A DNA stretch of 64,000 bases, taken from Helicostylum pulchrum. Lineage: Eukaryota > Mucoromycota > Mucoromycetes > Mucorales > Mucoraceae. Location: positions 124,001-188,000 of the forward strand of contig JAIXMO010000045.1 in assembly GCA_025677825.1 (NCBI GenBank). The letters run 5' to 3'. A model generated the notes under the pieces. That model was not told the origin of the DNA and ran no database searches. It saw nothing but the letters and a program-made list of their open reading frames with translations. Shown in pieces: positions 27,558 through 45,884 of the stretch. Within the stretch, counting starts at the first letter, position 1; each line of letters starts with the position of its first letter. The position numbers and the translations under genes were made by a program.

Positions 27558-28540
27558 GAAGACTTTTTTTTTCAGTTACCTACTCCACGCTGACATTGAA
27601 CTATTTGGTTTATTTTTAAGGTTTTCAACGATTCTGTTACAGAATTCTGCTTTTGTATGATAGGAAGAGCCGACATCGAAGAATCAAAAAGCAACGTCGC
27701 TATGAACGCTTGGCTGCCACAAGCCAGTTAATCCTGTGTAATTTTCTGGATACCATCTGGATCATGAAATCTGATTCGTGTCGAACATGACACTTTCGCG
27801 GTCCCTGATCATGATGCAATCCGACGTCTTTGTTGTCGAGATAGGATGATATGGCGGCATGGCGATCCATCCAAATTTAACATGAAGCCATGCGCATGCG
27901 TAAAGAGCCCACTTATACGCGGCCAATTCATTCAGTCATTTCTTTCGTCATGATTCATGTCATTTCATTTCATTTTCATTTTCATTTTCATTTAATTTTA
28001 TTTCATTTAATTTTCATTTCATTTTATTTGTGGGCATTTCTGGGCATGGTGAATAAACAAGATGCTATTAAATCTTTTTCGGGGGGGGGGGGGTCTGGGA
28101 GTCTCCCCCAGGAGAGGAGGGGGTTTGGGGGGAGGTACCTCCTCTCAAAAAAGGAACCGTCGCTAAAGCATTCTTTTTAACAAAGTTAAAGAAGAGCTTG
28201 TCATGATAAAAAAAAACTCGGGGGAAAAAGCCAGCACTGCGTGCGGAGTGTAAAATATTTCCTTAAGTTGGAAATGAAATGCCGCCGCTTCTGTCAAACT
28301 ATGTTGTCATTTGCAAAAAAAAAAGAATTGCAAGAAAAGTTTAGAAAAAAGTCTTTCAGACACAGTGCGCAGACTCAATACAGCCATGTCACCCGTTTTT
28401 GTGTGCTACCTGTTGGTTGTCAAAAATGTTGGCCGCCAACAAAAAAAAAAAATGGCATGACTTGACCATTTTAAAATGTTGTTGAAGGGTTTAAAAGATC
28501 AAAGATTGATTTGTAAAGAAATAAGATCGACTTGTATTTT
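27558..28540. other. No supported gene; CATTTT microsatellite and G12 run
   Basis: A degenerate (CATTTT)n tract lies at about 27958-28030. A G12 run is followed by a GGAG-rich stretch at 28081-28140. Base composition between 27640 and 27900 is more GC-rich than its neighbours. No coherent coding chain was seen. Confidence 0.5.
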
Positions 28541-28543
28541 AAA

Positions 28544-28569
28544 GCTGGCAACTTATAATTGTTGCCAGC
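28544..28569. repeat. Perfect 9-bp hairpin upstream of accessory ORF
   Basis: GCTGGCAAC at 28544-28552 and GTTGCCAGC at 28561-28569 are exact reverse complements with an 8-nt loop. It sits ~80 bp before the first ORF of the Helitron-associated cluster. It could be a protein-binding palindrome or an element-end hairpin. Confidence 0.7.
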
Positions 28570-28596
28570 AAGGTGCTTGTTCCGCTAAATAAAAAC

Positions 28597-28604
28597 TATA
28601 AAAA
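28597..28604 (+). promoter_or_regulatory. Candidate TATA box
   Basis: TATAAAAA lies 44 nt before the ATG at 28648, in a suitable place for the accessory ORF. Sequence match only. Confidence 0.45.
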
Positions 28605-28647
28605 GGATTAATTACGAACGACTTTTTTATCTTTACTTTGATTAACA

Positions 28648-29634
28648 ATGGAAAATCAACTGCAAAATTTACAGGAAGCTTTACAAGGTCTGCTGCGAGA
28701 GCATGATGAACAGGCGTTGAATCCTATCAAAGACGTGTTGCAAGAAAATCTACAATTTGGTCTGTATGAGAAAAATTTGTACATTTGTACTGTCATCGAC
28801 GGGGTGTGCCACTCATGCCAGCAAGGGATCAGGACAATAGACTTGACATTTGAGCAAGATGATGATGAATATGAGGATGATGAGTCGGAAAGTGTGGACG
28901 ATGATGAAGTGGCGACTCCTGTTCCTGTTCGCGAGCCTCAAGTAGAAAGGGATGTTGCTGATGTTGTCGTAGTGCAAGATGTTGACAATGGCGGTAATGA
29001 ACAAGTAGAGGAGCTGGAAGGCGCCGTCGCGTTGGTGGAGATCATTCCACAGGAGTAGGAGCAGATGCGAGCGAAGTACCCTGGATCGACGCAGCATTTG
29101 ATCAATGCTCGACTCAATCGTTTGATCCGTCCAGGACAAGAACCGACGTTGTTGCATATGCGGGACAGTGTACTGGGTTGTCAAACCCTGCCGGATGTGG
29201 TGTTCAATATCAGTCAAATGTTTCAGTGGACAGACAGGAAGATGTCAGATGTTGTGTTTTGCAAACGGTTGTTGTGCTGGTACAGTTATCAGCTGGAAAC
29301 TGTCATGTATACGCAAGGAATGACGCCTCGTGATATCTGTGCACAGTTGATGAACCGTAAGCTGATCACTGACGAAAGAGTGTATGCAGCACGGCTCTTG
29401 TTGGGGAGAAAAGTGGATCTTGTGTACAGAGTATTGGGCGCTCCAGGTGTTTTATGCACTGAAGTGGTTAGTACAAAAATGTTAAAGAGAACGGAGGTTT
29501 ATATTTCCTCTTATGTTAACTATGTTCAGGCCCACCATGTGTTGCCTCTTGAATGTACTCAAGACCAGAGCAACCTACTGGTGGTGATGTATTTGTTTTT
29601 GAACATCCCACGCCATTTAGTGCGTCTTTTATAA
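28648..29634 (+). pseudogene. Helitron-associated accessory ORF with one in-frame TAG
   Basis: The frame from ATG 28648 is open for 136 codons, meets TAG at 29056-29058, and continues open in the same frame to 29634 (329 codons in all). The first part has a C-x-x-C (VCHSCQQG) and a strongly acidic tract (DDDEYEDDESESVDDDE); the second part is a helical domain (e.g. KMSDVVFCKRLLCWYSYQLE, LGRKVDLVYRVLG). The plan of short N-domain, acidic linker and helical C-domain resembles the gene at 35394-36124. Base use is more GC-rich than the surroundings. Function unknown; adjacent to the Helitron gene on the same strand. Confidence 0.6.
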
Positions 29635-29688
29635 AAATAATTGCATTAAACATCCTACTCCATTTAGTACGTCTTTTATAAAAATAGT
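29600..29688. repeat. ~40-bp tandem duplication at ORF end
   Basis: The segment around the stop codon (ending GTGCGTCTTTTATAAAAATA) is followed about 50 bp later by a near-copy (GTACGTCTTTTATAAAAATA). Confidence 0.7.
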
Positions 29689-29960
29689 TTGCTGTTGAAA
29701 AAAAAAAATTATAGATTCAAGCTAATACGGAAAAGGTTTATTTACAAAAGAGAGATGATTTGAATTTTAATAAAAAGAAAAAAAATTAAATAATGTTGTT
29801 AAAAGGAAAAAAAAATAGTGTTAAAAAGAAAAAAAAATAGATGATGGATGGTAAAGGTAAAGGATATCCAAGGTCCTGAATTTGGGTTTCTAATGCCTCC
29901 ACACAGCTAACAAATAACAATTAATTTTATACCGAGGATACAGGCCACTTACCTTTCAAT
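29689..29960. other. A-rich spacer between accessory ORF and Helitron gene
   Basis: Contains repeated AAAGGAAAAAAAAATAG-like units near 29800-29840. No gene. Confidence 0.5.
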
Positions 29961-32900
29961 TTGACCGCGACTGTTGCGTCGGTTACTTTTTCTCATGCTT
30001 GGCAAACAGAAGAAGGTAACTGGGACCGGGATACCTACGATCAACCTTCTCTAAGCACCATATGGGGGTTGGAGGAAGCCATTGTTTTGGACGATGCGGA
30101 TGTGTTTGTAGTCTGTCAGCGCCACCAGAATCCTCGGCGTGATCCTATGCATTTGTTGACCTATCCTGGACCCAACATTGATCGTTATTTAGGGGATCGA
30201 AATTTCAGTTACCGCGAACGCAGTGCACTGTCTCCTATCAAGTTAATGTCGCAGGTGACGCGAGGTACATCCCGTATTCGAAACTATTGTGGTAATTATG
30301 AGCAAACAGGGACGATGTGGACGGAACATAACCTTGAGTTTACGCAAATGTTGTACGGCGGAATGATGGGAAGTCCTATTATTTCCGGTATTATGCAACC
30401 AGTCGATCAAAACAAAATCCGTGCGTTGTTTTATTTGCTGCAAGAAATCAACCCACGATTGGCAGCATACAATGAGCCCGTGGTAAGGGCGGATACAGAG
30501 AGACATGCGTTGCGCAAGATTCACCAGTTGGGACAAACTCGTCCAGATGAGCAGGCTTGGCTTTACAATAATGTGGTCAATATTGAGAGTGAAAATCCTT
30601 TGGCGGGTAATATCAATTTGGACGATATGATTATTGGTGTGGATGATCGCTCAAACGATGTGCGCTACCGAGACATTAGTCACGTGCTTGCGTTGATTTT
30701 TCCTTACTTGTTTACGCAAGGTGTGGGTTATTATTCATTGCATAATCAACCCAATGATGTTCCAGAGGCTGAAGGGGGTTATGCCTTGTCGAATCGTCAT
30801 TTGACTGTGTCTGCGTATTCAAAACTGTTGATTCAGAGTGCAGATCGTCGTTTCGGTAGAAGTCCTGAGTTTTTGTTCTTTATGCTGGATTACATTGAAC
30901 GTAAGAACATTCACTCGTATAATCGATTTGTCTTACCCTTAGCATCCAACCAGGAATACAAGCGTGGGGATGTGTGTCGTGATGGAGAATACATTATAGA
31001 TACAACCCCAACTGTACCTCATACTGTCCGAAGTTCAAGAGCGTATAAAAAGAAACATGGATTGAATTTATTTGTAAGTGGGGGGAATAAGATAAACTCC
31101 TTCCTGTTGCTAAATAGATTTTTTTTTTTTTAGAATATGTTTCTTCGACTTGGTTCACCTCAGCTTTTTATTACGCTGATGTGCAGTGATTTTGCACCCG
31201 AGTATGAAGAGCTCTTAGAGGGGGACAGGCCTTGGGAAGATCCTGTTTTATTTTCGCTGCATTTTAAACGAAGTTTCCAGCGTTTTTTCAATCGATGCAT
31301 ATTGAGAAGTGTGAGTGATGAGATAGGAGGAAATGAGTGTCGAATATTTAATAATTTTATTGGTTTTGTAGTCGTTTGCAAATATGGTGGGTGGGGTAAC
31401 AGACTGGTCATATACGGTTGAGTTGCAAGACCGAGGAAGGTAAAAAGAAAAAAGTAAAACGTTTCGTTTTTAGGATCTGAATTTTAATTTTTTTACAGTC
31501 CTCATGTTCATTTTGTACTATGGACAGGAAAGACCGCCGATCAATTGCTAGCCATGCCAGATCTTGTTGTAGCACGTTTACCAGATGGAGATCACGACCC
31601 AGATTCGTTGTACTTGGTGAATTGAATGCAGATACATAATTGTGGTGATTACTGCTGCAGTCTCAGAGGGCGAACAAACCAATGCCGTTTTGGATATCCG
31701 TTTGATGTCAATGATCGAGCGTACTTTGATGAAATGACCAACCGCTCTGTATATATACGTGAGGCAGTGGATTCCTACGTAGATCCCCACAATCCCTATC
31801 TTTTAAAGCTCACCCTAGTAAGTATGGATATTCAGGTCAATTATACAGGCAGAGTCATGTACTATTTGGCCAAGTATATGAGCAAAATAGACCAGAGTGT
31901 CGAGTTGGAGTATGGTATGGAAGATGTAAAAACTCACTTAAAAGCAAGAGAGATGGGGGCTGTGGACGCGGCCTGTTTTTTGTCAGGTTGGAACAAACAT
32001 AGGAGTAGTCGAGGTAAAATGTACATCAGTCTGGTATTTCCTGGTTTGGATGAACGTAGACAACTGCGTCGTAATCTGGGTAATCTTGAAGAGAACGATA
32101 CGAATATATTTTCTGCCACACATGTGTAAAAGTATTTATGTCGACACAGACAAACACGTGAATTAACCTTGATTGAGTATTTCACTAGTTATATCTTAAC
32201 GGATGAACAAGACGTCGAGGACGAGTTTGAGGAACCGACAGGACAATCATTGCCAGGGCAACTTAACCGTCGCAGCATGAATCAGGTGGAACCGGTTGTA
32301 TTTGACCCGCATATTGGTCCTCTGCAATTGAATGATGCTTGTGAGTGAATCAACATTGGGCTAGACAGACCAATACGATGCACGGATGGATTTGGTGTCC
32401 GGTATCGTGGACGTGATGTTGCAGAAAAGATACCGTTTTGGCGTACACATCTTTATAATCAAACGTCAGGTGAAGCATTTTACTATTAAAACGTTTTGCT
32501 GTACTATCCTGTGACAGATCTGAATGCTTTACATGACGAGCACGAAAATTGGCGAGCTGTCTTTTTTGCAGTGTGTAACGAATATGAGTTTCGAATGCTT
32601 CCGGCCCAGTTGGCTGAAGTTCGACGTATTGATGAAGTCATGCAAGAGACGGGATACAGTTCAATGCCTCAATTAGAGCTTTTTACAGATATGATGCGGG
32701 CTGAGACTTTAGAAGAGCTGTCCAACATGCTGGAGACGGTATCGGATGAGCAGAAAACGGTGTACGAGCATTTGGTAACCAATGCGTTTGAAGTAAGTGC
32801 ATTTGTGATCTATGACTCTGCAGACACAGGAAAAAGCTACCTTTTACACCTATTGTACAACGTGTATGTGGCCAATGGTTTCAATCCTGTTATTCTGGCG

Positions 32901-33972
32901 CCTACAGGGGTAGCTGCACATACGATTGGAGGACAAACGTTGCATCGTTTTTTTCGGTATCGATGTAGAAATCGGTATCGTTAATCTGATTCGTCTTGAG
33001 ACATTCGTCAAGATGTATCAGCACGTGGTACTTTTAATAGATGAAGTGTCTATGGTGAGCAGCAATCTGGTGACAAGGATTGACGAAGCTTTACGGGTAG
33101 TGCTGCAGAACGACTATTATTTTGGTGGCGCCAATGTGATCTTTTTTGGAGACATGGCCCAGTTACCACCTGTGGAAGAAAATGAGGGTTTGTTTTTTCA
33201 AAATCCCGCAATTACATCAAATTTGAATTTCCAGCTTATGGCCCAGCAGCGTCAAGACCCTGCAGAACTTGTCTTTGCTGAATTTTTGCGTTGTTTACGC
33301 ATCAATGTATTTTCACGTGAAGTAGTCGAGTTCATTATGGCGCGTCATCATGAGGAGCAAATGATCCCGCTTAAAGCCATCCGTTTGTTTCCTACAAATC
33401 GGGAAACCGATCAGTACAATCAAGACCGAAGTCTACGCATGCCAGGTGTTGCAAGACGTTACACAGCAAGTGATGCAGGTCCCACTTTGACGTTAAATGA
33501 GACACGTCTGACATACGAGCTGGATTTGAAAGTGGACATGTTGTGTATGCTGTTGCATAACATTGATGTGGAAAATGGGTGGACAAACGGCACCATGTGC
33601 GTGATTACGGCGATGCTACCAAATGAGGTGATTGTGGCGCGCGCCACTGACGGGGTCTGTAAGGCTATTGTTCGTATTATACGTGAGCTGTACCAGTCGG
33701 CGTATTTCAGAAGTCAGTTCCCGCTTGCTCCGGCCTTTGCTTCTACAGTGCACAAGACGCAGAGTTTGGCCATGGATAATGGAGTGGCTATCTCTTTACT
33801 GAGGCCGTTAGAGTCTTTTGGTCAGTTGTACGTTGCCTGTTCTCGGGTCAAAACCGCGCGCGATTTGTACTTTTTTGGTTTAGGCGGTACTCTGCAGCAT
33901 CCGTCTGTGGAAGTAGGTGTGAATCATACCATTACCGCGTTTTTAAACAGTCTTGCAAATTTGAGCGGGTAG
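29961..33972 (+). pseudogene. Helitron-type Rep/PIF1 helicase, degenerate
   Basis: Several introns can be removed (31074-31133, about 31311-31371, 31440-31498). The joined frame carries a Helitron N-domain (LSNRHLTVSAY, YIERKN), the HUH motif SPHVHFVLW near 31500, a two-tyrosine block MYYLAKYMSKI near 31860 (nicking/strand transfer) and a PIF1-type SF1 helicase (IDEVSMV, FFGDMAQLPPV, STVHKTQSLA, YVACSRVKT). Rolling-circle transposition is the family role. Lesions: in-frame stops at 31623 (TGA), 32127 (TAA), 32346 (TGA) and 32487 (TAA), and a +1 shift in a T7 run at 32948-32954. The Walker A reads DSADTGKS where G.AGTGKS is expected, so two glycines are Asp. The N-terminus is not resolved. Not functional as it stands. 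Confidence 0.88.
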
Positions 33973-34060
33973 AAAAAAAAAGGTTGTTTAAATGTTATAA
34001 GATAGACAAAAAAAATAAAAAATATGAGATTTTTGTGTGTAGGTTGTTATCTTTTTTGGG

Positions 34061-34200
34061 TATAAAAACTCTGACCCCTTTTTTTTAAAACGTGCCAGTA
34101 GGTTTAAATCTACTTCCTGTCAACGAATTCCCATTGTTCTTATAAGTCAATCGAGTTAAAAAAAAGCGGACGTGTCGCGGACGGCATGCGGACGTGTCGG
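34061..34200 (+). promoter_or_regulatory. Candidate promoter: TATA box and GC-rich direct repeat
   Basis: TATAAAAA at 34061 is followed by two copies of GCGGACGTGTCG (34166-34177 and 34188-34199), spaced 22 bp (about two helical turns), unusually CpG-rich for this window. They precede the intact accessory gene at 34282. Role inferred from position. Confidence 0.4.
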
Positions 34201-34281
34201 CTTTAGAAAAGGCGTGAGTTTAAAATGAGCGCTTTTAAAAAGGTGTCAAAGAAAAATCCCTTTTTCTTTTTTTTTTTAACC

Positions 34282-34810
34282 ATGTCTGGATCCTACCATT
34301 TGACCAACGTAAAAGCAGAAACCAGTTGCCTCATCAAAGTTGACAAACGAGCTCGCTGTAAAGCGGAGCGCAGTGTTCGGGTGGGAGCGCAGTTTGTTAG
34401 ATTAATGTCATATGTTCCAAATGTAATGACTTACATGATAAAAGTATGTAAAGACACCAATTACTTTCATTGCCAAGGTACATTACATAAAAAAAATAAT
34501 GAACAAAACAAAAAGTGTAAGTAACCCGTTTTCTTTAGACCCGCTTACTGTAAAATCTGCAAATGATATCAATGTATATGCTCAAACGTATATGAATGTA
34601 CAAGTAGAAGAACTGACATTTGAAAACAAAACCGTCATTGTTAACAAAAAAGAAGTCAATCTTTTGTTGAATTACTGGCTCCTTAGATATGTCGTACGTT
34701 ACTTCGAGGACACATCAAAAATAGTCAGCCAAGTCAGTAAAGATGTGCTCGTAGAGCAACTAGTAGATTTACATTCGCGTGTGCATAAGTATGATAAAGT
34801 GATAAAATAA
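34282..34810 (+). CDS. Accessory ORF of the Helitron cluster (hypothetical)
   Basis: Two exons, 34282-34477 and 34539-34810, with a GT-AG intron, give 155 aa without stops. The protein starts MSGSYHLTNVKAETSCLIKV, is Lys/Val-rich with three or four Cys, and its C-half is helical (LLLNYWLLRYVVRYFED). No family recognised. An upstream in-frame ATG at 34225 adds a poly-Phe stretch and is less likely. Same strand as the neighbouring accessory ORFs. Confidence 0.6.
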
Positions 34811-34819
34811 AAATAAAAA

Positions 34820-35213
34820 AATTAATCACTCTTGGACGGCAGTGCCGGATGTTAATATAAACGAGGTGCCTTTATTTGACGCCGGTGTGCAACGGGAGGT
34901 GGAAGCTCGCCGCCAAAACGAGTAAGGTGTAATGACGGCTGCTCTTCGGGCGAGTTTGTTACAAAGAGTGCAAGAGCTTTCTGCGGAAGACGTCAGTGTG
35001 CAAAGTTATACTGCGGTTGCTGCTGCAGCAGGTCCTCCTTCTTCTGGCGGTGTTCCTCCTTTTTCTGGCGGTGTTGTTCCTCCTATTTCTGGCGGTCCTG
35101 CTGCTCCTCCGGGTCCTTCTTCTGGCGGTCCTGCTCCTTCTCGTTATGATTTAAGAAGTGGTGGCTCTTCAAACACAATAAAATATAAGAAAATCAAAAT
35201 AAAAGTAGAATAG
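34820..35213 (+). CDS. Accessory ORF with Gly/Pro/Ser repeats, possibly split by TAA
   Basis: From ATG 34932 the frame encodes 93 aa: a helical N-part (LRASLLQRVQELSAEDVS), then imperfect repeats of SGG-V/P-PP, and an end SRYDLRSGG plus a Lys-rich tail. The same frame is open upstream from about 34820 (VPLFDAGVQREVEARRQNE) apart from one TAA at 34923-34925, so the ancestral protein was probably longer. Function unknown. Confidence 0.5.
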
Positions 35214-35393
35214 CTCTGAAGTCGGTTGGCGTGCGAATCTGGGATCTCGATCTGAATGTAAAGAATCTGGATCCTTTTTTTTTTGAAAAAAGTAAAGTGT
35301 TCTATGCAGCATAAATAATTCTACAGTGGCTGGATAAAAAACAAAAATTACTGTAAAGTGACGGTCAGATTCTTTTTTCTTTTTTAATTTGCA

Positions 35394-36124
35394 ATGGAAG
35401 ACCGAGTCCGTGTCCAAGGGGAACGAATGTTAACTCTGCTACGTGAAATTGAAGCTGAAGAAGAGGAGAGGGGTAAGTTACGTGTACATATTGTTTTTTT
35501 TCATGGCTGATACTTTTTTTTTCTAGGTCGAGAGGTTATGGTCGATGCGTTGATGCACGCAATCCATCGATTCCCGATACACAGAAATCTGAATGATGGT
35601 TGTTTGTACGTTTACGGTCGCGATGGAAGAACACTTATTTCTACAGACGATGCCATGGTGGACTTGATGATTTGTAAGTGATGCATGTTATCCCAAAAAA
35701 AATACTAATCCGTTATTGAACAGCTGATGATGATGAGTCGGAAGATGATGAAGGGGAAGATGAAGGCGAGGAACAGGAAGAAGAAGACCTGACAGGAGTG
35801 GTATTACAAATACATGCTGTCCCACCTCAGGTACTGCAACATTGTTTGGATAGGCTGCAGCAAATAGAATTGGCTTTGGCTGAGACCAACGGCTTCATAC
35901 TCCGAGAACAGATTGATATGCAGCTGAGACGTTTGTATGACCTGTTTTTGACTATCCGCGAAGATCGACCAAGAGCGATTGATCAACGTAATGCGCAGCG
36001 ATACGCTGTGAAAATGATCCGGCTGTATAATCTGTTTGTGATTGAGGCGTCGTTGGTTCAAACCGCTGTAGGTTGGGAAGGTGAAGAAAGAACAAGTTTT
36101 GTAGACGTATACTACCGTAAGTAG
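35394..36124 (+). CDS. Accessory ORF with acidic linker (hypothetical)
   Basis: Three exons (35394-35472, 35527-35673, 35724-36124) give 208 aa in frame. The order is an N-terminal domain (DALMHAIHRFPIHRN, CLYVYGRDGRTLI), an acidic stretch (DDDESEDDEGEDEGEEQEEE), then a helical part (LDRLQQIELALAET, DMQLRRLYDLFL). The architecture resembles the ORF at 28648. The helical part aligns loosely with the ORF at 45387 (EIDVHSLFRLYYNTDF). The next ORF at 36126 probably continued this protein before a frame break. Confidence 0.55.
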
Positions 36125-36125
36125 A

Positions 36126-36452
36126 ATGAAAGAGTGCATGCGCAAACGTTTATATGTAGATCTTTCGTGGGATGTACGTGAACGGAATACCATCAGGGCA
36201 ACCATGGCAGCAGCACGAGCAGTGTACCAGTTGGTGTCTACCCGTGGGCCTGTGATGCTGGTTCATCCAGAATGGTTTGATCTACGACTGCTGATGAACA
36301 ACAGGAGAACCCGAGTGATCCGAGAGCAACATATGTGTCAGGAAGACATCTTGATGTTGAGTCGTGCAGTGCGAGCTTTTGGTGAATTGGAAGCCATGCA
36401 TAGTGTCATTGATGTCAATGGGCAGCAGTTGGTTCCTGATCTGCTGGATTGA
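36126..36452 (+). pseudogene. Probable 3' part of the preceding accessory ORF
   Basis: The frame opens 1 nt after the TAG of the previous ORF, in a different phase, and encodes 108 aa (MRKRLYVDLSWDVRERNTIR ... NGQQLVPDLLD). In the ORF at 45387 the comparable segment (RKVCIILDFCNENFREQHS) is continuous with the helical domain, suggesting that a frameshift or an unrecognised intron splits this copy. Confidence 0.45.
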
Positions 36453-37400
36453 TTTTAAATAATAAAACAAGTAACAATTGAAAAAGAAGTTCACAAAGTG
36501 ACGTCATTTTATCAAACACAGTTTAAAAGACCCTCTTTTAAAAGACAATTCCAAACGGATCTTGAGATACCCAACCATTTTAAAAAATAATTTGTTTTAT
36601 ATGCTATATTAGAATTAGAGTACGGGTCTATTATTAATGTTCTGTAAAGTCGTGATATTCGCGAATGACACCGTTGTAAGTATAATGACTTTAATAAGCC
36701 TGATTTTAAAAATCCGATGACTTTTTTAATGTGAGTGTATTTTGCAATTGCATACCTGTATAAAGTCTACTTGCGAAGAGAGATTTTATTAATTTTCTAT
36801 GTAAGTTTTTCATACAACATTATCTACACCTGTACCATGTACTTGCGTGAGATTGTTTTTTGACGCCAGCAATAGCTTTTTTTTTAAAAAAAAAGATTTT
36901 TTTTTACCTAATAAATGAGCAATAAGTGAAGTGGTTGCAGAAAACCAATGGAAAAATACATTCATAATTTTGATGCGGTTTTTTTCTCAAGATTGCAACA
37001 AAGAGAGGCATAAGACAGTAGAAATATTATGGAAACAATTAAGAAGTTCACAGTGACATCATTTTTCTATCATAATTTAACGCGTGAAGCAGCACAAGAT
37101 AATTTTTGAACGCGTGATTGATAGTATAGCTTTTGATACGAAGCGGTCTTACGATCTTGTACTTTGGCGCAAGAATATCTTGTCTAGGCGAACGTAGTAC
37201 TTATGTTTGATTAGATTCTTAAAACTTACGTATGACAGTAGCGATAAAGAATATATTGACACAGAAGAGGAGAACAGTGATACATTAAAGGAGACCAAAA
37301 ACAATCAGTCTTTTTTTTTTTCATGTCCAGTCCGCGTTTCATAACTCACTTTCTTTAGTTAGTTTTACATTCTATTGCGTTTTGTGAAATTCAAACAGAG
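36453..37400. other. No supported gene; diverged ~50-bp repeat
   Basis: AAGAAGTTCACAAAGTGACGTCATTTT near 36484 recurs, with indels and changes, near 37044. The rest is AT-rich spacer and the leader of the next gene. Confidence 0.5.
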
Positions 37401-41541: not shown

Positions 41542-42884
41542 ATGGCTCTTTCACCTAACGAAACTTTTGACCCTCCCAGGTCGGGAATTACACCTCGTGT
41601 ATCATATGCTGACGCAGTGAATAATAATAAAAAAAATTCGTTACTACAACAAAACGTTCACTTTTAGAACAACAACCAACAATTAATGCAGGCACCTCTA
41701 CTGAGGGTGACGTTAAAATTATTCAATCTCGAGTTTGGAGAGATACTTTTTCTAATAATGGTTATATTCTGGAGGTCTCCAAGTTAAAAGACCTTACCAA
41801 TTATCAACATCTTAGCGTTATCCACTCTATATATGGCAGTACCAGCTTCCATGGCATCAAATTTTTAGGAAAGCCTACTCAGCGATACTTTGAGCTATAC
41901 CCTAAAGATGCCATTCTTGAAAAATTCATCACCGAAGGTGTCTTCTATGAACATGTCAACAGTCGTCTCCTTCCTTGTAAAGCCCTTGAGGGTAAAGGAA
42001 ATGTTATTCAAGTTAAATTGTCGGACATTCCTTTAATTGATAAACACGAGATTTTATCGACCCTTCGTGAAAACATATCTCACCTTGGTGAGATTATCGA
42101 CTTAGGATTGTATTATGAATCTGATATAGGATGGTTCATGGGTACTGGCTATGCGATCCTTCAACAAGATCCCAAAAAGAATTACTCTACTCTTAGCCAT
42201 AAATTACCTTGGGGAGATACTGATGCTTTCTTCCATGCAACATTTCCAGATATGCCAACGCGGTGTCGCTATTGTCACGAGGATGGTCACACGAAGTATG
42301 ATTGTAGTAAATCCCGTGCAAGCATCCTATGTTTTGCCTGTGATCAATTTGGACATCGACAAGCAGAATGTCCCAGACCACGAAATGCCAAATCAAAGCT
42401 TCGTGCTCCTAAAAAGCCTAGAAAAACACCAACCACCAGCGAAACCATCATGTCTGCTAGTATTGAATTACAGAAATCAAAGTATGCTCCTACCGTAGCG
42501 ACTCGGGTGATGACACCTACTCTGTCCACCATTACTAATACCGTATTTACACACGACAGTAGCGACGAGGATTTCACCCCTAACAACCTAGAAGAGGAAA
42601 AAAGCGATACCGATTTGGAAGACAGTGGCGAAGAAATGACATATAGTCAAACTTCCAGTGCCAACAATATATCTAATGTCGAAGAACCCACCATTGAACA
42701 CTTTAATGATGATATGAATCTAGACTGGACGCAGAACCAATCACCGCCTATTCATTTTAATTTTCAACATCTAAACTCTTCGCCCCACATAATACCTAGC
42801 AGTACGCCTTCATTACGAATGTATGTATCGGACCCACCCCAACCAGGATCGGATCCTACCTATACACAACACTCTCACCAGTAA
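41542..42884 (+). mobile_element. LINE ORF1 (CCHC zinc-knuckle RNA-binding protein), frameshifted
   Basis: Starts MALSPNETFDPP, with PRVSYADAVNN as in many L1-type ORF1 proteins, then a stop at 41665-41667. The next phase continues (EQQPTINAGTSTEGDVKI) to 42884. The C-half has two CX2CX4HX4C zinc knuckles, CRYCHEDGHTKYDC (about 42264-42305) and CFACDQFGHRQAEC (about 42331-42372), then a Lys-rich and acidic Ser-rich tail. ORF1 proteins coat the element RNA. ORF2 follows on the same strand after a short gap. Confidence 0.8.
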
Positions 42885-42902
42885 TGAATAAAAAAAATCA
42901 CT

Positions 42903-43756
42903 CTTAATTATGCCTCACTGAACTGCAACAGTTTAGTTAAAACCGGCTCACAATCAACTCAATCATCATATATTCGCTTTTTACGACTTCAACAGTTCGA
43001 CATTCTATTCTTACAAGAAATTAACACTTCTGACTCTATTATTCCTTCCATTACTATGCAACTACAGTCACTCCAAAATTTTTGGACAAAATACTGTGGT
43101 CTAATATTTTTTTCTCCTAACCATTCATTAACATTAGTTGATACTAATACAATATATGCCTCGGATAAAATTCTGCTTTGTAAAGTCTCCCATCCTCACG
43201 GATTTTATGAACCATATTTTATTCTCAACCTTTATGCATCTGCCAGCTCCAACGTAGAACGGCGAACTTTTTTTTATTCTCTTTAGTCTATGCTATTTCA
43301 ACTCCATACTTCTGATATCATATCTTTCCATCGTTTAATTATATCAGGTGATTTTAATTATGACTATGACTGGGACATACTATGCAACAATCGCTCCTTC
43401 AAAACCTCTACTGACTGGGTATCCTTTTTATTGAAATTTTTTTATAACTGCATGTCTTTTAATGATTTAGATTCTGTTACTACCTTTCAGCGTAACGTCT
43501 CCATTCGGTCTGTCATTGACTATATCTATGCTGGTAACGATCTTCAAAGTCTGATTACTGATGCCAATATCGAACATATCAAACCACAGTGGTCTGATCA
43601 TGCTTTACTATCTGTGAAACTATCGTTAAGTGACTCAACATGGGCCTGACCTCTGGCGAGGTAATCCAGTATATGCTGCTAATAAATCCTTCCAGAAACA
43701 ACTACAAACCAAACTGGATCAACTACTGTTAAAAATGTCTCCCGATTTTTCCCCAT
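42903..43756 (+). mobile_element. LINE ORF2 AP-endonuclease domain, degenerate
   Basis: The frame reads ASLNCNSLVKT and QQFDILFLQEINTSD (endonuclease N-terminal block), a TAG at 43284, then LIISGDFNYDYD, VIDYIYAGN and WSDHALLSVKL, the standard GDFN and SDH active-site blocks of the exo-endo-phosphatase fold. After a frameshift near 43645 comes PDLWRGNPVYA, then a TAA at 43756. Two stops and one shift in ~850 nt show it is inactive. Confidence 0.8.
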
Positions 43757-43758
43757 AA

Positions 43759-45100
43759 TTGAAATGGGAAGCGGTTAAATCAACGACGAAACAGGTTATC
43801 AAATCTTTTGGCACTAAATATGTATCTTGGCGTACACTAACATTGCGAGAATTAGGAAGAAAAAGAAATCGATTGTTACGGTCTAAACCTCCAGTTTCGA
43901 TCCTTCAGCTTACACTCCCGAAAATCGATAAAATGATCTACATATTACAGCAGGAACTGGTCGATGTAGCTGCTCTTAAGGCAAATGCAATTTGGCGCGA
44001 AAATAATGAGCGTTCATCTGGATACCTCAAAAGTGTGCATCGACAAAGGACTGTACAACAATATATGGCTTCTCTCCAATCACCTACAACACCAATGGTG
44101 CTAGATCAAGCCAAAGGATTGGATCTCCCTGGTATCGGTCTGCTATTGGATCAAGAAAAAGCATACGACAGGGTGCACCCAGGTTACCTGAGTCAAGTGA
44201 TGCTTAAGTTTGGTTTCTCTCCTTCCTTCGTAAAATGTATTCGTACTTTATTTTTTGGTAACGGTGTATTTATAAATATCAATGGTTTTTTTACTTCTTG
44301 TATTTCACAACAGCGAGGTTTGAGGCAAGGTGATCCACTCTCTCCTCTACTCTTTAATTTGGCCCTAGAACCTCTTCTGCTTTCTATCTTACAAGATGAC
44401 CAACTGCACGGGGTTACGTTCCAAAGTTCATCCTATACTGAAGGTATCTCTACAGATTCTCCGACAATCAAACTTCTCGCATATGCGGATGATGTCTGCC
44501 TCATTCTGCGTGATCAAAATGACTTCTCTCGTGCTCAACACCATATGCTACAATACACGACTGTATCCAATGCTAAATTCAATATCGATAAAACTGAAGC
44601 TTTCGCTCTAAATGGTAAACTTGATACCTCTTGGGTTTCGGTTCTAACTGACCATGATATCTCGGCTTACCATCATAGTGGATCTGTACAAGCTTTCCGT
44701 TATCTTGGGTTCTATCTCCCCTATAATACACGACAACGCCGAACACTAGAAGATCAACTATTATTGAAGGTAACTACCCAATGTCAAATCTATTCTCAGC
44801 GTCAGCTATCGATCCTTGGACAAGTAACTATTATGAATATATTGATTCTCTCCAAAATCTGGTATTCCTTACGACTCCTGCAACCGACAAAGCGATTTTC
44901 CCAGCGTCTTCGATCCTCCATGTATCAATTTATCTGGCAAAAGAAACACCCTGCTTTGAAAAAAGAAATGATCTTTCTCCCGTGGACACATGGCGGATTA
45001 AAAGTAGACCAAAATTCCAACGTAGGCATTTAGAACGAGCTCCGCACCGTCATCCTTCTTGCTGCAATCGACAACAGCAGCTTGAACCTCCAAACTGATG
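43759..45100 (+). mobile_element. LINE ORF2 reverse transcriptase, internally deleted
   Basis: After a helical linker the frame jumps from SLQSPTTPMVLDQ to GIGLLLDQEKAYDRVHPGY, so the conserved fingers motifs that normally precede motif A are missing. Present are motif B (QQRGLRQGDPLSPLLFNLAL), motif C (LLAYADDVCL, about 44476-44505), NIDKTEAF and the thumb (FRYLGFYLP). The end shifts frame near 45000-45030 and no RNase H or typical 3' zinc motif is intact. The domain order and ORF1 zinc knuckles match L1-clade elements described in Mucoromycota (Grem-LINE1-type). Non-functional. Confidence 0.88.
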
Positions 45101-45386: not shown

Positions 45387-45884
45387 ATGCAAGTAGTCGA
45401 GCCTGTTGTACCTGAATCAATGCACGTAGTCGAGCCTCTTGTTATTGAACCACCACTGTCGGCGTTAGCACAAAGGTTAGGACACTTACGAGAGGATCTT
45501 ATGAGGGTTATACCAGACCAAATGGATGAAGAATTTCTTACCCGAGCACAAGAGATCGATGTGCATAGTTTGTTTCGTTTGTATTATAATACCGATTTTT
45601 TGAGTCAAGCAGAACGATATCAAATTGCGTACGAGTTATACCATCGATACGTGGGCAGTCAAAGGCACGACTTATTTGCTCAGACCACGTTTAGGGATCT
45701 AGTGCGTCAACAGCAGTTGCTGTATGTGTTACGTTTGGGACGCAAGGTGTGCATTATACTTGACTTTTGTAACGAGAATTTCAGGGAGCAGCACTCGATG
45801 CGAGCATTTTCAACTGTGATTACTGAGTTACCTTTGGTAGAGTGCAGTCGAGAGCAGTTGATTGAAGCCTTAGGCACTTTTTAG
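45387..45884 (+). CDS. Accessory ORF related to the Helitron-cluster ORFs
   Basis: 165 aa from ATG 45387, uninterrupted. The N-terminus has two imperfect repeats (MQVVEPVVPES, MHVVEPLVIEP); then comes a helical domain (LREDLMRVIPDQMDEEFL, DVHSLFRLYYNTDFLSQAER) and a C-half (RKVCIILDFCNENFREQHS). The helical domain and the following block align loosely with 35798-36452. GC-richer than flanking DNA, like the other accessory ORFs. Function unknown; a detached copy ~9 kb from the cluster. Confidence 0.55.
   Translation: MQVVEPVVPESMHVVEPLVIEPPLSALAQRLGHLREDLMRVIPDQMDEEFLTRAQEIDVHSLFRLYYNTDFLSQAERYQIAYELYHRYVGSQRHDLFAQTTFRDLVRQQQLLYVLRLGRKVCIILDFCNENFREQHSMRAFSTVITELPLVECSREQLIEALGTF

What the first reader, a model, noticed from the sequence alone, without database searches (positions are those of the whole stretch)
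28648..36452. Helitron Rep/helicase embedded among unrecognised accessory ORFs
Same-strand ORFs at 28648, 34282, 34820, 35394 and 36126 flank the Rep/helicase gene and share its GC-richer composition. At least two share the plan N-domain, acidic linker, helical C-domain. A related ORF recurs alone at 45387. Helitrons often carry extra genes, but a repeated acidic-linker family would be a new cargo or cofactor type.
Basis: partly seen in the sequence, partly recalled or inferred. Interest (0 to 1): 0.75.

Follow-up and report, generated by a model that had tools for sequence, protein, structure and literature searches.

The report
Fungal Helitron with dedicated accessory genes
In the mould Helicostylum pulchrum a rolling-circle transposon (Helitron) lies beside three genes of unknown families, and at least one of them has been kept by selection about as strictly as the transposon's own enzyme, so they are probably working parts rather than random passengers.

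Summary
The host is Helicostylum pulchrum (Mucorales). The window holds a decayed Helitron Rep/PIF1-helicase gene. The five listed ORFs are most likely three genes: g1 (28648-29634, one stop inside), g3/4 (34282-35213; joining its two parts is a model) and g2 (35394-36452; "36126" lies in its third intron). The only close copy of this helicase in the genome (copy B, C88) has all three beside it, g1 on the opposite strand. No homologue was found in the stretches read around five more distant helicase loci. A-versus-B divergence is a patchwork: g3 (omega 0.08) evolved under about the same constraint as the Rep half (0.06), while helicase and g2 differ little. So g3, and less surely g1 and g2, look like element-encoded cofactors, not passive cargo. 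Relatives of each gene also occur elsewhere in the genome. Three protein searches found none outside H. pulchrum. The acidic linkers of g1 and g2 are real, but g1-g2 homology is unproven and ORF 45387 shows no supported relation. Element ends, activity and biochemical function are undetermined. Fungal Helitrons with element-specific extra genes are in print; this is a gene-rich variant.

The parts
28648..29634 (+). g1: accessory gene 1, N-domain + acidic linker + helical C-domain; one in-frame TAG at 29056-29058
   Evidence: uninterrupted 328-aa homologue P0004, 97.6% identical, W at the stop; diverged homologue beside copy B on the opposite strand
29961..33972 (+). Helitron Rep/PIF1-helicase gene, decayed (several nonsense codons, one frameshift; the N-terminal cysteine motif of copy B not seen here)
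   Evidence: PF14214 at 31134-31418, PIF1 at 32496-33969, HVHF near 31500 and YYLAKY near 31860; stops and frame break read by eye against copy B
34282..35213 (+). g3/4: accessory gene, model exons 34282-34477, 34539-34779, 34843-35213; in-frame TAA at 34923-34925
   Evidence: exon 1-2 splice; exon 3 placed by eye from frame and homology, not in the annotated P0005; A vs B omega 0.08 for the g3 part; further copy on C155
35394..36452 (+). g2: accessory gene with acidic linker, exons 35394-35472, 35527-35673, 35724-36116, 36160-36452, 303 aa, open
   Evidence: splice search; annotated protein P0001 covers it with a different start and last junction; copy B last exon 93% aa; homologue on C147
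36453..36896 (+). 3' non-coding region shared with copy B; holds pieces shared with dispersed repeats
37015..37066 (+). short motif shared with copy B (92%), similar to 36471-36535; right limit of A/B similarity found

Best explanation
The ORFs are three accessory genes of one Helitron lineage of H. pulchrum (shown: they lie beside the Rep/helicase in both copies of this subfamily). The lineage split into at least two element types that each kept the gene set and later exchanged blocks by recombination (the divergence patchwork is shown; the process is inferred). The proteins most likely act in trans with Rep/Hel in rolling-circle transposition (inferred). For g1 and g2 the layout of a small helix-strand N-domain, an acidic linker and a helical C-domain suggests a chaperone-like or adaptor role, such as opening chromatin or holding Rep/Hel on its DNA (inferred, weak). 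g3 may be a DNA- or protein-binding helper (inferred, weak).
For: Copy B on C88 aligns to window 30024-31171, 32128-36896 (with gaps) and 37015-37066; outside these only short simple-sequence matches occur. g1 homologues (41-51% aa in pieces) lie about 0.25-0.4 kb from the Rep gene in both copies. A/B omega: Rep N-half 0.06 [0.03-0.09], dS about 2, 328 codons; g3 0.08 [0.04-0.14], dS 0.75, 145 codons; g1 pieces 0.13-0.30 with dS near saturation. Helicase dS 0.07-0.09, g2 dS 0.105, intergenic identity 66-72%. g1 is uninterrupted in another record of the species. g3 followed by g4 recurs in that order at C155:61.1-62.2 kb (g3 49%, E 3e-51; g4 E 6e-8).
Against: Only two copies, both decayed; B lacks 31171-32128 with the HUH and tyrosine motifs, so activity is not shown. 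g2 alone gives no clear selection signal (dN 0.053, dS 0.105), g4 is loosely constrained (omega 0.25). Relatives of g1 (C89, C1), g2 (C147) and g3/4 (C155) sit away from this helicase, so selection could have acted on host genes before capture. g1 lies on opposite strands in A and B, and the stretch 27900-30024 has no DNA match elsewhere in the genome. No homologue around five other helicase loci. Ends not found. Both structure models are of low confidence.
Confidence: 0.55

Rival explanations
1. Passive cargo: host genes with paralogues elsewhere were captured by the Helitron and now decay; they do nothing for transposition.
For: Relatives exist apart from this helicase: g1 at C89 (also in another record of the species, P0003) and a piece at C1, g2 at C147, g3/4 at C155. 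In the window g1 and g4 each have a stop. Helitrons are known to capture genes (PMC6431247, passages).
Against: Strong constraint on g3 and probably g1 between the two element types, similar to Rep; multi-exon genes rather than fragments; the same gene set beside both copies.
Confidence: 0.25
2. Anti-silencing proteins: the genes do not help DNA transfer but counter host silencing, as VANC proteins do for VANDAL elements, which would explain fast divergence and narrow distribution.
For: No relative outside the species in three searches; g1 diverges fast between element types. VANC known here from a search listing and abstract starts only.
Against: No comparison with VANC was made; g3 is slow-evolving rather than fast (dN 0.061).
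Confidence: 0.12
3. A host gene cluster into which a Helitron inserted, later copied as a segmental duplication.
For: Genes have short introns and host-like structure; element ends unknown.
Against: A/B DNA similarity is limited to the Rep-to-37066 stretch and g1 is inverted between copies.
Confidence: 0.08

Closest known systems
HELPO1 Helitrons of Pleurotus ostreatus with cap genes (PMC4289320, passages read)
   Same: Fungal RepHel element whose intact copies carry one to four extra genes of unknown origin downstream of the helicase, diverged between copies (capA/capA2 45% similarity).
   Different: cap genes are said to have no copies outside Helitrons; here relatives exist elsewhere, one accessory gene lies upstream, and constraint like that on Rep was measured. 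Sequence relation to cap genes was not tested.
FoHeli3 of Fusarium oxysporum (PMC5148889, passages read)
   Same: An extra ORF upstream of the transposase on the opposite strand, without known domains and only in Helitrons, as g1 in copy B.
   Different: One extra ORF, not three genes; sequence relation not tested.
Plant Helitrons with RPA (PMC4683698, passages read)
   Same: Helitron with a separate accessory gene thought to serve transposition.
   Different: No RPA or other Pfam family reached its cut-off in g1, g2 or g3.
Helentrons with endonuclease or OTU domains (PMC5148889 and PMC6431247, passages)
   Same: Extra domains beside Rep and Hel.
   Different: There the domains belong to the RepHel protein; no such domain was found in the pieces scanned here.

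Membership tests
Helitron | Rep domain joined to a PIF1-type helicase | tested here: met
   PF14214 E 1.1e-8 in the window and PIF1 E 9.3e-24 in copy B; copy B helicase matches Helraiser 7lcc E 6.3e-25 among 19 PDB sequences, mostly PIF1. The gene is broken, so one polypeptide is inferred.
Helitron | HUH motif and catalytic tyrosines (motif form recalled) | tested here: met
   HVHF near 31500 and YYLAKY near 31860 in the window; the stretch is missing from copy B
Helitron | Defined ends (TC...CTRR with hairpin, or Helitron2-type ends; recalled) and insertion without target duplication | tested here: inconclusive
   only 10-12 base inverted matches between flanks; the 3' side is a mosaic of repeats
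Helitron | More than one copy in the genome | tested here: met
   one further copy at 95% helicase identity; 7 weaker matches at five other loci
One acidic-linker protein family (g1, g2, 45387) | Acidic linker between two domains | tested here: met
   met by g1 and g2 only; not met by 45387
One acidic-linker protein family (g1, g2, 45387) | Detectable sequence homology between members | tested here: not met
   g1/g2 C-domains no signal, N-domains weak (32 of 2000 shuffles as good), 45387 none
Plant-type RPA Helitron | RPA-like single-strand binding protein | tested here: not met
   no Pfam family above its cut-off in g1, g2, g3; a hidden OB fold is not excluded

The most novel reading that the evidence does not exclude
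A Helitron type that encodes a multi-protein transposition machine: Rep/Hel plus three dedicated, selection-maintained helper proteins of families not in Pfam, two of them sharing an acidic-linker design, which are exchanged as modules between element types and have given rise to solo genes in the host.
Probability: 0.3. Interest if true: 0.65.

Novelty: new variant of a known kind. Interest (0 to 1): 0.45.

Why it matters
Extra genes in Helitrons are often read as captured passengers. Here the divergence between two element types allows a test, and g3 at least is about as constrained as Rep. If the proteins are true cofactors, they give a handle on how Rep/Hel works in chromatin and on what else a eukaryotic rolling-circle element needs.

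Tried and rejected
Rejected: 45387 as a family member. Rejected: five separate ORFs. Viral origin: viral contigs gave no confirmed relative of the g1 C-part, g3 (11 stretches hit a pattern, none confirmed), P0001 (115 hit, none confirmed) or the copy B helicase; these scans reach close relatives only. PDB sequence search of P0004 and g2: 0 hits at E up to 1; of the Rep piece 31626-32126: 0 at E up to 10. Structure models at mean pLDDT 39.8 and 39.3 were not used for fold searches. Weak Pfam hits below cut-off for g1-g3 were taken as chance. Element ends: sought by A/B alignment, dispersed repeats and inverted repeats, not found. In one search the g2 exon 3 row was misaligned and is not used; one search is used for g2. 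In one search the helicase row was in a wrong phase (15 and 14 stops) and only its nucleotide identity is used. In one search the first choice of the second g3/4 intron and the splice scan of the C155 minus-strand copy failed; that intron was then placed by eye. One search's tblastn printed nothing and was redone; one search's HMM scores failed and were redone.
Full report
Where it is. The window is C109:124001-188000 of a 32.2-Mb assembly. Proteins P0001 and P0005, named EDC94DRAFT of Helicostylum pulchrum, lie on a contig of 246091 bases, the length of C109, so the host is this mucoralean mould (lineage). HPULCUR proteins (P0002, P0003, P0004) come from another record set of the same species; that these belong to strain KT1b (PMC11385716, search listing and abstract start only) is my inference.

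What the ORFs are. The Rep/helicase gene at 29961-33972 is a Helitron gene by PF14214 and PIF1 matches, but it is decayed: read by eye against copy B it has several stops and a frame break. g1 spans 28648-29634 and is broken by one TAG; the same protein is whole in P0004, 97.6% identical. g2 splices from 35394 to 36452 into 303 aa; the reported ORF 36126 starts within its third intron. The annotated P0001 fuses a piece of g4 to g2 and uses another last junction, whereas P0002 has the junction of my model. g3/4 starts at 34282; the first intron is computed, the second is my model by eye from frame and homology, the annotated P0005 ends before it, and a TAA stops the model at 34923 in the window.

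Copies. Nine helicase matches were found in the genome: the window itself, copy B at 95% identity, and seven weaker ones on C92, C167, C57, C155 and C111. Copy B carries g3/4 and g2 downstream in the same order and a diverged, broken g1 upstream on the opposite strand. Around the five other helicase loci (10 kb each, 30 kb for C92, 20 kb for C167) no g1-g4 homologue was found; the hits there were E 0.057 or worse. The helicase fragment on C155 is the nearest further relative (46% over 175 aa). C155 also bears, about 31 kb away, one clear g3-g4 pair (g3 49%, E 3e-51; g4 E 6e-8) and a second, opposite-strand candidate pair that I recognise mainly by eye (E 0.067 against window g3, E 0.45 against the first pair). 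Whether these belong to one broken element is open.

A patchwork. Along the A/B alignment, in 150-base bins, identity is 0.67-0.85 in the Rep N-half, 0.93-0.99 in the helicase, 0.74-0.89 around g3/4 and 0.90-0.97 in g2. The jump from low to high identity coincides with the deletion in copy B that removes window 31171-32128. I read this as two element types that both bore g1, Rep, g3/4 and probably g2, later recombined. Limits: two copies, simple counts, saturated dS, later decay included, and selection during a host stage not excluded.

Age. P0002 shows the same frame break as copy B (GRDRRTRRCHGGLDDL), so copy B is probably older than the split of the two sequenced strains.

Relatives elsewhere. 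g1: C89 (its counterpart P0003 is 22% identical to P0004 over nearly the full length, E 3e-15) and a piece on C1; g2: C147 (26.5%, E 8e-16); g3/4: C155. These may be source genes, or genes left behind by elements; the data do not decide.

Shared plan. Both acidic linkers stand out. Low-confidence models put two helices and strands before the linker and mostly helices after it in both proteins. Sequence tests support homology only weakly for the N-domain and not for the C-domain. So 'same plan' holds as a layout, not as a proven family.

Distribution. Three protein searches gave 2 of 1770, 2 of 1478 and 1 of 2908 scored candidates, all H. pulchrum. The search needs shared exact words, so distant relatives in Mucor or Rhizopus could be missed.

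Known context. Extra genes in fungal Helitrons are in print: HELPO1 cap genes and an upstream opposite-strand ORF in FoHeli3; plants have RPA. My searches with Helitron plus Mucoromycota (8 of 8 papers listed), Helitron plus acidic plus accessory protein (4 of 4) and Helitron, fungi, accessory, open reading frames, captured (20 of 144 listed) showed no title or abstract start that describes these genes; papers were read only in passages where stated, and no supplement was seen.

Verdict. A real accessory gene set of a Helitron lineage, probably cofactors; function, ends and spread across species remain open.

Noticed in passing
window 36578-36755: This 3' stretch matches 14 other places (13 at 68-85%, one of 33 bases at 97%) whose other sides fall into different repeat groups; their shared edge lies near window 36742-36755. 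It looks like the terminal piece of another transposon family.
   Followed up: partly
window 36740-36892; L026, L028 (C99): A stretch shared with copy B and with two oppositely oriented copies, 91-94% alike over longer stretches, about 26.5 kb apart on C99.
   Followed up: partly
L050 (C89:66.8-67.7 kb): The solo g1 gene has an in-frame TAA inside an imperfect duplication of about 50 bases (by eye); the other record's protein skips it, perhaps by a short intron.
   Followed up: partly
window 42018-45033: Non-LTR retrotransposon remains: CCHC ORF and reverse transcriptase.
   Followed up: no
L034:1-690 and L062:461-955: MULE transposase (E 1.1e-18) next to one dispersed repeat, and a DDE transposase remnant (E 0.0099, below cut-off) upstream of the C155 g3 copy.
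   Followed up: no
L014:9554-9961: Weak uracil-DNA glycosylase match (E 0.0052, below cut-off) upstream of copy B.
   Followed up: no
L036:2348-2658 (C136): Two weak stretches of similarity to ORF 45387 (joint E 0.007).
   Followed up: no
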